From contig JAJTHM010000055.1 of NCBI GenBank assembly GCA_021297855.1, positions 1 through 64,000 of the forward strand: a stretch of 64,000 nucleotides of DNA. The letters run 5' to 3'. Numbering within the stretch: position 1 is the first letter of the stretch; each line of letters begins with the position of its first letter. Position numbers and translations under genes: made by a program. The stretch comes from Sphingobacteriales bacterium. GTDB taxonomy: Bacteria > Bacteroidota > Bacteroidia > Chitinophagales > JADJOU01. Below the pieces are notes generated by a model. That model was not told where the DNA came from. It made no database searches and saw only the letters and a list, made by a program, of their open reading frames with translations. Of this stretch, positions 43,961 to 48,092 are shown piece by piece.

Positions 43961-46354
43961 ATGACCCTCTACGAAAAACTCCAACTAGCCTCTAGCGAAG
44001 AAGATGTCAAAGACGCTTATATCAAAGCCATAGGTATCAAGGAGTATCAGAAAAATTTGATAGATATTCAGACCAAGGAAATCTGGTTTGAAGCTAAAGA
44101 GGGTGGACGAAACTCGACCTATGCCATGTTTACCCAGCTAATGCACTATGTACAAGTGGCACTCGACCGAGGGGAATATATACCGCCATTCTTAGCGGTT
44201 ATCGATACGCAGAAAGCAGCTATCATGAAAAGTGAGGATGTCATACCCTTTCTAGCTAAAAAGACTATCAAGTGGGGTAAATCGGCGAGTGGCTATACAC
44301 AAGAAGCCTTAGATGAAGTCTCGGCTTATATCGGGACGTATTTTGTCAGCTTCAAGATAGAAACCCACGAAGAGGAGTTTATCCATACGATAAAAAATGC
44401 TATAGTCAAAGGCGATATTATCCGCACCCAAATCACCCCGGACAATCTCAAGCAGGTATTTGATAAATGGGTAGCGATGATAGGGCGAGAGATACGAGAC
44501 ATAGCCGAAGAAGATTATGCCTTGCTCTTCTTTGCCGACATCATGAGCGATGGCACGGTATCGACCCATACAGACTTGACTGCCGAGCTGCTGCATCGAA
44601 ATAATCAACCTGTATTTATGCTCAATGGCAAGCTCTACGAACTATCCAACCGAGAAGGCTACCGACAGTTCTGGGCTATCTATCATCGACCGCCTAAGGC
44701 TGAATACCGAAATTATCTTCTAGAGCGCAGAGATAGTCTGATCCCTATCGACGAGCGCAGCTTCAAAGGGGCGTATTATACCCCACTCGCTGTGGTGGAC
44801 AAGGCTTATGATAAACTGACCGAAACCCTCGGCAAAAACTGGCAGAAAGACTATATCGTCTGGGATATGTGCTGTGGGGTAGGAAACCTCGAAATCAAGC
44901 ACTCCAACCCTCGCAATATATTTATGTCCACCCTCGATAGCGAAGATATCGATGTGATGAAAGCCACCAAAACCTGTGTAGCTGCTACCCGATTTCAGTA
45001 TGATTATCTCAATGATGACATAGCCGACGATGGCTCGATAGATTATACACTGACCAATAAAGTCCCCCAAGCTCTCCGACAAGCTATAGCCGATGGAAAG
45101 AAAATACTGGTGCTGATCAATCCGCCGTATGCGGAAAGTGGCAGTGGTATAGGTAAAGGGGATAAAAATAAAATAGAAGTAGAACAAACACAAATAAATA
45201 CTCTAATGAAAACCCAAGAAATGGGTTATGCAAGTAAAGAATTGTTTGTTCAGTTTTTGGCAAGAATTGCAAAAGAAATACCTTCTGCAACTTTAGCCAT
45301 GTTTAGTACATTGAAATATGTCAATGCTCCAAATTTTGAGAAATTTAGAGGAATTTGGAATGCTAAATATTTAGGTGGATTTGTAGTACATAGTAAAGCA
45401 TTTGATGGATTAAAAGGTGATTTTCCTATTGGATTTTTAGTGTGGAAAACAGATCACCGTTCTCAAAAAAAACAACCAATAATTGAAATTATTACTGAAG
45501 TTATTGATAAAAATGCTAAGCCTATTGGAGAAAAAAGTTTTCATAATTTGCCAAATAAAATATTCCTAAATGCATGGATGAAAAAGTCAATGACAAATAA
45601 TGAACTTGCATTGCCTTTATCTAATGCTTTAACTATTTCGAAAAATCCAAGAATAAAAATGTCATGTGATAATATGAAAGGATTTTTATTTGCTGGAAAT
45701 AACGATTTTCAAAATTCATTAACAGGCACTTTAATTACATCATCAATATATACAGGTCGAAATGGTGGAGGTGTATATATAGACCAAAAAAACCTTTGGC
45801 AGGCTGCAATTGTATTCTCCGTTCGAAGATTAATTAAACCTACATGGCTAAATGACCGCGACCAGTTCCTGCAACCTACAGAGCCGCTGACCGAAGAGTT
45901 TAAGACTGACTGCCTGATATGGATGTTATTTAATGGTTCTAACCTCACTGCCTCTGCCAATGACCTCGACTGGAACGATAAAAAATGGTCGATAGTCAAT
46001 CACTTCATTCCTTTTACAGAAGAAGAAGTCGGCGCACCTGATCGGTTTGAGTCAGACTTTATGGTCCAATATCTCCGAGATAAGAAGCTCAGCTCTGAAG
46101 CCAAAGCTGTCCTCGATGAGGGGCGCAAGTTATGGAGAGCCTACTTCGCCCATACCGATGTACGAGCTATGCGCGATGAGCTGAAACTAAACCGCCCCGA
46201 TGTAGGCTGGTATCAAGTCCGCAAGGCACTGGAAGCTCGAAATAAAAGTGGAGATTTTTCTGTAGTCAGTTTTGTAGCATTTAAAACGGCTTATGAAGTC
46301 TTGAGTGACAAGCTAAGACCCATGGTGTATGAATTGGGATTTTTGAGGAAATAG
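43961..46354 (+). CDS. Stand-alone N6-adenine DNA methyltransferase / type IIG (Eco57I-like) restriction-modification-like protein
   Basis: Motif I 'VWDMCCGVGNLEIKH', motif IV 'LINPPYAESG', N-terminal possible nuclease 'IDIQTKEIWFEAKEG' (D...ExK-like). No separate specificity subunit nearby. Confidence 0.8.
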   Translation: MTLYEKLQLASSEEDVKDAYIKAIGIKEYQKNLIDIQTKEIWFEAKEGGRNSTYAMFTQLMHYVQVALDRGEYIPPFLAVIDTQKAAIMKSEDVIPFLAKKTIKWGKSASGYTQEALDEVSAYIGTYFVSFKIETHEEEFIHTIKNAIVKGDIIRTQITPDNLKQVFDKWVAMIGREIRDIAEEDYALLFFADIMSDGTVSTHTDLTAELLHRNNQPVFMLNGKLYELSNREGYRQFWAIYHRPPKAEYRNYLLERRDSLIPIDERSFKGAYYTPLAVVDKAYDKLTETLGKNWQKDYIVWDMCCGVGNLEIKHSNPRNIFMSTLDSEDIDVMKATKTCVAATRFQYDYLNDDIADDGSIDYTLTNKVPQALRQAIADGKKILVLINPPYAESGSGIGKGDKNKIEVEQTQINTLMKTQEMGYASKELFVQFLARIAKEIPSATLAMFSTLKYVNAPNFEKFRGIWNAKYLGGFVVHSKAFDGLKGDFPIGFLVWKTDHRSQKKQPIIEIITEVIDKNAKPIGEKSFHNLPNKIFLNAWMKKSMTNNELALPLSNALTISKNPRIKMSCDNMKGFLFAGNNDFQNSLTGTLITSSIYTGRNGGGVYIDQKNLWQAAIVFSVRRLIKPTWLNDRDQFLQPTEPLTEEFKTDCLIWMLFNGSNLTASANDLDWNDKKWSIVNHFIPFTEEEVGAPDRFESDFMVQYLRDKKLSSEAKAVLDEGRKLWRAYFAHTDVRAMRDELKLNRPDVGWYQVRKALEARNKSGDFSVVSFVAFKTAYEVLSDKLRPMVYELGFLRK

Positions 46355-46355
46355 G

Positions 46356-46416
46356 TTTAGATGTAAGAGGTTAGATATGAGATGTTAGATATTAGAAGTG
46401 AGAAATAAGAAATAGG
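46356..46416. repeat. TTAGANN heptad array downstream of the methylase
   Basis: ttagatg taagagg ttagata tgagatg ttagata ttagaag tgagaaa taagaaa. Confidence 0.8.
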
Positions 46417-46515
46417 TATTCAGCTCTTAGTGCGCTTTGTGGGATTCTTTATTCATGTTGAAATGGTTTTATTAAGGAATTCATATTTGCTGCGCAGGAG
46501 TGCACTTGGTGGTTA
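46403..46515. repeat. 113-bp direct repeat, copy 1
   Basis: aaataagaaataggtattcagctcttagtgcgctttgtggg...gagtgcacttggtggtta; one mismatch to copy 2. Confidence 0.95.
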
Positions 46516-46526
46516 ATAAAAGGGTG

Positions 46527-46605
46527 ACTTGAGATATGAGATGTAAGATGTTAGATATTAGATGTTAGAGATGAGAAGTGAGAAATTAGAAATAAGAAAT
46601 AGGTA
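46527..46605. repeat. TTAGANN heptad array between the two 113-bp repeats
   Basis: tgagata tgagatg taagatg ttagata ttagatg ttagaga tgagaag tgagaaa ttagaaa taagaaa. Confidence 0.8.
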
Positions 46606-46702
46606 TTCAGCTCTTAGTGCACTTTGTGGGATTCTTTATTCATGTTGAAATGGTTTTATTAAGGAATTCATATTTGCTGCGCAGGAGTGCACTTGGTGGT
46701 TA
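46590..46702. repeat. 113-bp direct repeat, copy 2
   Basis: Same as 46403-46515 at offset 187 bp; tgcActttg instead of tgcGctttg. Confidence 0.95.
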
Positions 46703-47933: not shown

Positions 47934-48021
47934 AATTAGGGATGTATAGATGATAGATATTAGACGTTAGAAGTTAGATCATAGATACTAGATGTTGGAT
48001 ATTAGATGCTAGAGATGAGAG
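47934..48021. repeat. TTAGANN heptad array between the two unknown-function genes
   Basis: ...tagata ttagacg ttagaag ttagatc atagata ctagatg ttggata ttagatg ctagaga tgagagg. Confidence 0.75.
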
Positions 48022-48092
48022 GGGTAATTTTAAAAGGAAAATATGAGTGTATTTTGTGAAGTTTTATCAATAAAAAATGATGCGAGTAAACT

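What the first reader, a model, noticed from the sequence alone, without database searches (positions are those of the whole stretch)
45150..45850. Mosaic methylase gene: AT-rich central segment suggests a swapped specificity module
Within the uninterrupted methylase ORF, composition and codon usage change abruptly. Hand counts per 60 nt line: 45061-45120 is 29/60 GC, 45241-45300 is 20/60, 45541-45600 is 15/60, 45601-45660 is 16/60, then 45841-45900 is 32/60. The AT-rich block starts just after the NPPY motif and ends before the conserved C-terminal part. That is where the rest of the catalytic domain and the target-recognition region would be expected in type IIG/Eco57I-like enzymes. It looks like a recombined specificity cassette inside an otherwise conserved shell.
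Basis: partly seen in the sequence, partly recalled or inferred. Interest (0 to 1): 0.75.

Follow-up and report, generated by a model that had tools for sequence, protein, structure and literature searches.

The report
Swappable AT-rich specificity cassette in methylase
This bacterial gene encodes a one-piece restriction-modification-like enzyme whose middle third, probably the part that reads the DNA target, is exchanged between distant bacteria while the rest stays put; the swapped part is AT-rich in nearly every close relative, in a way its foreign origin does not explain.

Summary
The ORF (43961-46354, 797 aa) is a solitary type IIG-like enzyme with a putative nuclease motif and a methylase, and no Pfam or NCBIfam family. 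In 78 near full-length sequences (77 relatives plus the window gene), mean pairwise identity is 81% before the block, 58% in it and 73% after. Some pairs share 97-100% DNA in most of the shell but only 44-78% in the block. The shell tree follows phylum; the block tree does not.

One inference needs correcting. The block is AT-rich in 77 of 78 members. Its fourfold-site GC tracks the host with the same slope as the N-terminal shell but about 0.35 lower, so AT-richness is not a donor imprint. Target-recognition domains (TRDs) of type III Mod and MmeI-like enzymes show the same dip; Dam, whose TRD is not exchanged, does not. The bias follows exchange rather than DNA recognition. GC-biased gene conversion confined to the recombining shell would explain it but is unproven. 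Three more distant relatives lack the dip.

The parts
43961..46354 (+). Single-polypeptide type IIG-like restriction-modification enzyme, 797 aa (nuclease-like N-terminus, adenine-type MTase, TRD, helical C-terminus)
   Evidence: Open frame. 77 homologs align over most of its length with invariant motifs. Best structural matches are DrdV, BpuSI, BrxX/PglX and LlaBIII. No Pfam, NCBIfam or PDB sequence match.
43961..45130 (+). Conserved N-terminal shell, aa 1-390
   Evidence: Mean pairwise identity 81% (aa 1-396); family GC4 0.61; tree of the two shell parts together follows phylum
44063..44098 (+). Putative PD-(D/E)XK-type active-site motif D35-x8-E44-A-K46
   Evidence: D, E and K present in all 76 sequences that cover it. 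Lies on a beta strand in the model. Fold match to known nucleases is weak (best DrdV, E=0.05).
44861..44896 (+). MTase motif I region WDMCCGVGNLEI (AdoMet binding), aa 301-312
   Evidence: CCGVGN invariant in 78/78
45119..45130 (+). MTase motif IV NPPY, aa 387-390; last codons of the N shell
   Evidence: Invariant in 78/78. Family GC4 is 0.59 at aa 386-390 and 0.35 at 391-395.
45131..45844 (+). Exchangeable AT-rich specificity module, aa 391-628
   Evidence: Change points 45143-45844; identity collapse and swap pairs; tree incongruence
45221..45451 (+). Catalytic half of the MTase carried within the module (aa 421-497), after motif IV
   Evidence: Conserved stretches ELF.QF..R / AT.A.FS..KY / FPIGFL.W. 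GC4 as low as in the rest of the module: 0.34 in the conserved blocks.
45452..45820 (+). Hypervariable, beta-rich putative target-recognition region (aa 498-620)
   Evidence: Lowest conservation in the gene; beta strands 509-607 with high pLDDT
45845..46351 (+). Conserved C-terminal shell, aa 629-797
   Evidence: Mean pairwise identity 73%; family GC4 0.54. Its own variable patches (aa 701-720, 761-775) are not AT-rich: GC4 0.54 and 0.58.

Best explanation
The gene is a stand-alone type IIG-like restriction-modification enzyme: a PD-(D/E)XK-like nuclease, an N6-adenine-type methylase and a target-recognition region in one chain. Its central third (aa ~391-628) is an exchangeable specificity module inside a conserved shell. 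New modules enter by recombination in the conserved shell on either side and would change the DNA sequence the enzyme methylates and cuts. The shell stays within a phylum while modules cross phyla. The module's AT-rich third positions are not a footprint of a foreign donor. They are a local compositional equilibrium that exchanged modules reach in their hosts, seen also in two other R-M families. Shown by sequence: module boundaries, exchange, host-tracking AT bias. Inferred: the biochemical functions, that the module sets specificity, the homologous mechanism, and the reason for the AT equilibrium.
For: Swap pairs at DNA level: L019/L035 90-100% in aa 1-375, 44-78% in 401-625, then 84-100% in most of the C part (one patch at 701-725 is 64%); L037/L072 the same in collinear contigs. 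The converse also occurs: L057/L082 module 92% with shell 87/78. The 12-member module class holding this gene is one clade on the module tree (99*) but scattered on the shell tree: 11 changes against 11.2 for shuffled labels, AU p 6.6e-6. Phylum labels need 4 changes on the shell tree (minimum 3) and 18 on the module tree (shuffled 22.6). No conserved neighbour genes, so a solitary gene. Fourfold-site GC regressed on neighbouring ORFs: N = 0.23 + 0.79 host, module = -0.13 + 0.79 host with r 0.84 and the smallest scatter. The dip is independent of residue conservation (module t = -24.9, entropy t = -3.3), appears in all eight fourfold codon boxes and is strand-symmetric: A and T both roughly double. 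Same dip in type III Mod, TRD GC4 0.22 against shell 0.59/0.52 and host 0.48, 18/18; and in MmeI-like, 0.28 against 0.42 and host 0.42, 19/20. No significant dip in Dam: 0.51 against 0.55, lower in 16/30, p 0.06.
Against: No methylome or enzymology, so specificity is not shown. The nuclease fold match is weak (best DrdV E=0.05), and the full-length model has modest confidence in places (pTM 0.67). Three more distant relatives on viral contigs (L110-L112) lack the AT dip, as does one 31% homolog, L006. Host composition was estimated from stop-to-stop ORFs in short flanks (at most 12 kb per relative). Homologs are not independent samples. Many are MAG contigs, so some phylum labels may be wrong.
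Confidence: 0.82

Rival explanations
1. The AT-rich block is a recent import from an AT-rich donor and still carries the donor's composition (the usual HGT reading).
For: The block is at the 2nd GC percentile of the window. Module histories cross phyla. The same reasoning was used for the modA12 DNA-recognition domain (PMC3311624).
Against: 77 of 78 members are AT-rich there, including members in GC-rich hosts. The module follows its host with slope 0.79 and less scatter than the shell. At 58-80% protein identity synonymous sites should be saturated (inference), so a donor imprint should be gone.
Confidence: 0.1
2. The module is AT-rich because DNA-recognition or fast-evolving protein segments favour AT-ending codons (translation speed, folding or relaxed codon selection).
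For: GC4 falls slightly with column entropy (-0.02 per bit).
Against: Conserved blocks inside the module are AT-rich (GC4 0.34), and variable patches of the C shell are not (0.54, 0.58). All eight fourfold boxes shift alike and strand-symmetrically. The Dam TRD, with the same function but not exchanged, shows no significant dip.
Confidence: 0.12
3. Ordinary conserved methylase with a uniformly evolving but compositionally patchy gene, no exchange.
For: Central composition shifts of up to 0.19 in GC3 occur in other long ORFs.
Against: Swap pairs, identity collapse and tree incongruence; this gene's dip is 0.33.
Confidence: 0.02
4. Solitary regulatory methyltransferase with a degenerate nuclease: methylates but does not cut, and module exchange rewires gene regulation rather than defence.
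For: No cleavage data, weak nuclease fold match, no neighbouring defence genes.
Against: D35, E44 and K46 present in all 76 sequences that cover them, which suggests selection for catalysis.
Confidence: 0.2

Closest known systems
Type IIG/IIL single-chain enzymes (DrdV 7lo5, BpuSI 3s1s, MmeI family)
   Same: Nuclease + gamma-type adenine MTase (motif I before NPPY) + TRD in one chain; best structural matches; the MmeI TRD shows a smaller AT dip
   Different: No sequence match to MmeI or other Pfam models or to PDB chains. About 800 aa. The exchanged unit starts right after NPPY and includes the later catalytic half. The C-terminus is conserved.
Type III Mod (EcoP1I/ModA) with exchangeable DNA-recognition domain
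   Same: Central variable, GC-poor recognition domain between conserved shells, exchanged between species (PMC3311624; dip in 18/18 here)
   Different: No Res partner here. Different motif order: DPPY precedes the AdoMet motif in Mod.
BREX PglX/BrxX and Type ISP LlaGI/LlaBIII
   Same: Large gamma-type adenine MTases with TRD; structural matches
   Different: No BREX neighbours; no room for a helicase domain (797 aa)
Domain movement (DoMo) of HsdS TRDs in Helicobacter pylori (PMC3077401, PMC3983042)
   Same: Specificity change by TRD exchange
   Different: There the TRDs move within separate S subunits by recombination at repeats within a species; here the module is internal to a fused enzyme and crosses phyla

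Membership tests
Type IIG restriction-modification enzyme | Restriction and modification in one polypeptide: nuclease active site present | tested here: inconclusive
   D35-x8-E44-A-K46 present in all 76 sequences that cover it; fold search of aa 1-245 gave only weak nuclease matches (DrdV E=0.05)
Type IIG restriction-modification enzyme | Gamma-type adenine MTase (motif I before NPPY) | tested here: met
   CCGVGN at 304-309 and NPPY at 387-390 invariant; fold matches to M.TaqI, M.BseCI, CamA
Type IIG restriction-modification enzyme | TRD in the same chain, no separate S, Res or helicase partner | tested here: met
   Variable beta-rich aa 498-620; no conserved neighbours
Type IIG restriction-modification enzyme | Cuts outside an asymmetric site, AdoMet-stimulated | not testable with these tools
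   Needs purified protein
MmeI family (type IIL) | Match to MmeI Pfam domains (TRD PF20466 etc.) | tested here: not met
   No Pfam match for this protein and no MmeI-domain match in ten homologs; PF20466 not found in this genome
Type III Mod | DPPY before AdoMet motif and adjacent Res | tested here: not met
   Motif order reversed; no Res (EcoP1I) match in this genome
BREX PglX | BREX gene cluster | tested here: not met
   Solitary gene; neighbours not matched by PADLOC models
Exchangeable-TRD enzyme | Same shell with different recognition modules in related genomes | tested here: met
   L019/L035, L037/L072, L071/L087
Exchangeable-TRD enzyme | Different modules confer different methylation motifs | not testable with these tools
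   Needs SMRT/Nanopore methylomes

The most novel reading that the evidence does not exclude
Exchangeable recognition modules of R-M enzymes sit at an AT-shifted compositional equilibrium because they lack homologous partners and so escape GC-biased gene conversion, while the flanking shell, where the crossovers fall, is GC-raised above its host. Each such gene would then be a within-gene natural experiment for biased gene conversion in bacteria, and the low GC of recognition domains, usually read as foreign origin, would be a by-product of non-recombination.
Probability: 0.3. Interest if true: 0.78.

Novelty: new variant of a known kind. Interest (0 to 1): 0.6.

Why it matters
TRD exchange is known, but here a widespread enzyme family with no Pfam or NCBIfam model shows exchange across phyla inside a shell that itself stays within a phylum. 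The low GC of recognition domains has been taken as proof of foreign origin (PMC3311624). These data show it can be a steady, host-tracking property of exchanged modules in three R-M families and not of a non-exchanged TRD (Dam). That undercuts GC as an HGT marker for such domains. It also gives a within-gene contrast, with the same host and the same transcript, for testing GC-biased gene conversion in bacteria (PMC4450053 argues that within-genome tests are the right ones). Practically, the shared shell suggests a family of enzymes whose specificity might be reassigned by module replacement.

Tried and rejected
Profile libraries: Pfam and NCBIfam found nothing; PADLOC and PHROGs gave only weak MTase matches. 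PDB sequence search was empty; phage records had no homolog. Donor-imprint explanation: rejected by the host regression. Conservation or codon selection: rejected. TRD function alone as the cause: rejected by the Dam control. Silent cassettes: only one other locus in this genome matches the module, a full-length paralog on contig C32, 42% identical in the module. Conserved partner gene: none. Nuclease fold search on the N-terminal domain: inconclusive. The P1 mod gene in the record used is interrupted by IS5, so EcoP1I Res was used instead to find Mod neighbours.

Full report
OBSERVATION. The five per-line GC counts are exact. The ORF 43961-46354 (+, 797 aa) is open throughout. Third-position GC is about 0.50, 0.15 and 0.50 in its three parts, and GC at fourfold-degenerate sites (GC4) is 0.62 / 0.09 / 0.55. 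The dip (0.33) exceeds every one of 79 control ORFs (maximum 0.19). The shell is itself unusually GC-rich for this genome region: the N part is at the 99th percentile and the module at the 2nd.

WHAT THE PROTEIN IS. No Pfam or NCBIfam model and no PDB sequence matches; plasmid records call relatives 'hypothetical protein'. The sequence shows a putative PD-(D/E)XK motif D35-x8-E44-A-K46 (all 76 sequences that cover it), AdoMet motif I CCGVGN and NPPY (both invariant in 78/78). AlphaFold2 on an alignment of 69 sequences (mean pLDDT 81.5) matches DrdV, BpuSI, BrxX/PglX, LlaBIII and M.TaqI-type methylases. The N-terminal domain alone gives only weak nuclease matches, so nuclease function is likely but not established. 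Homologs lie in unrelated neighbourhoods without a conserved partner. The gene is therefore a solitary, single-chain, type IIG-like enzyme.

EXCHANGE. 157 related stretches were found in bacterial genomes and the best 80 kept; 77 of these near full length plus the window gene were analysed. Mean pairwise identity is 81% (N), 58% (module) and 73% (C), and module identity barely correlates with N identity (r = 0.17). Near-identical shells carry different modules. L019/L035 share 90-100% DNA through aa 375, 44-78% from 401 to 625, then 84-100% again in most of the C part, apart from a 64% patch at 701-725. L037/L072 show the same in collinear contigs. The converse occurs too (L057/L082). The 12 members sharing this gene's module class form one clade on the module tree (99*). 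On the shell tree they are scattered as randomly as shuffled labels, and forcing them together is rejected (AU p = 6.6e-6). Phylum labels need 4 changes on the shell tree, against a minimum of 3, and 18 on the module tree, against 22.6 for random labels. Shells thus stay in their phylum and modules travel. This gene's shell is nearest to Weeksellaceae shells (84%), while its module is nearest to one in a Chitinophagaceae MAG and one in a Zambryskibacteria bin (81% each).

COMPOSITION IS NOT A DONOR IMPRINT. GC4 is lower in the module than in the N shell in 77 of 78 members, in several phyla. The step is sharp: family GC4 is 0.59 over INPPY and 0.35 over the next five codons. Conserved blocks in the module are AT-rich too, and variable patches of the C shell are not, so the effect is regional. 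All eight fourfold codon boxes shift, and A and T rise together, which points to a DNA-level process rather than codon choice. Regression on neighbouring ORFs gives module = -0.13 + 0.79 host and N shell = 0.23 + 0.79 host; the module is below host in 58/60 and the N shell above host in 46/60. A block that kept its donor's composition would not track its present host this well.

HOW GENERAL. In genomes of the window's own phylum, type III Mod shows TRD GC4 0.22 against shell 0.59/0.52 and host 0.48 (18/18). MmeI-like enzymes show TRD 0.28 against MTase 0.42 and host 0.42 (19/20). Dam, whose recognition domain is as conserved as its catalytic part, shows no significant dip (0.51 against 0.55; lower in 16/30; TRD limits of E. 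coli Dam, residues 57-144, taken from memory). The bias therefore accompanies exchange, not recognition. It is not universal: three more distant relatives on viral contigs (52-60% identity) and one 31% homolog lack it.

MECHANISM. Shown: boundaries, exchange, host-tracking bias. Inferred: new modules enter by homologous crossovers in the conserved shell. The likeliest reason for the bias, in my view, is that the shell repeatedly recombines with homologs and is raised in GC by biased gene conversion, whereas the module has no homologous partner and drifts to the AT-rich mutational equilibrium. PMC4450053 argues for biased gene conversion in most bacteria and that within-genome contrasts are the proper test. 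I did not test this directly, and direct selection on the module DNA is not excluded. Earlier work read low GC in the modA12 recognition domain as evidence of horizontal transfer (PMC3311624); the present data weaken that kind of inference.

LIMITS. No methylome or enzymology. Homologs are phylogenetically related, so P values overstate independence. Host baselines come from short flanks. Several records are MAGs. Trees were the quick variety.

Noticed in passing
46359-46515 and 46546-46702: A 157-nt intergenic direct repeat (91%) just downstream of the gene, with 14-nt-periodic TTAGATATTAGA-like tracts also at 47946-48029; shorter pieces lie on six other contigs of the genome.
   Followed up: partly
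G000 contig C32:9867-11834 (locus L008): A full-length paralog (38% identity) in the same genome with a weaker central AT dip (GC4 0.33 / 0.18 / 0.35).
   Followed up: partly
L110, L111, L112 (viral contigs): Relatives at 52-60% identity on viral contigs whose central region is not AT-rich relative to the shell.
   Followed up: no
G056 (six contigs): One related genome carries six distant paralogs of this enzyme, some incomplete.
   Followed up: no
L085, L065, L082, around aa 700-720 of the family: Insertions of about 50-60 aa, placed with certainty only in L085, at a variable patch of the C-terminal shell; this patch also differs between L019 and L035 and is not AT-rich.
   Followed up: partly
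type III Mod and MmeI-like genes, loci L114-L223: Recognition domains in these families are AT-shifted at fourfold sites relative to shell and host.
   Followed up: yes
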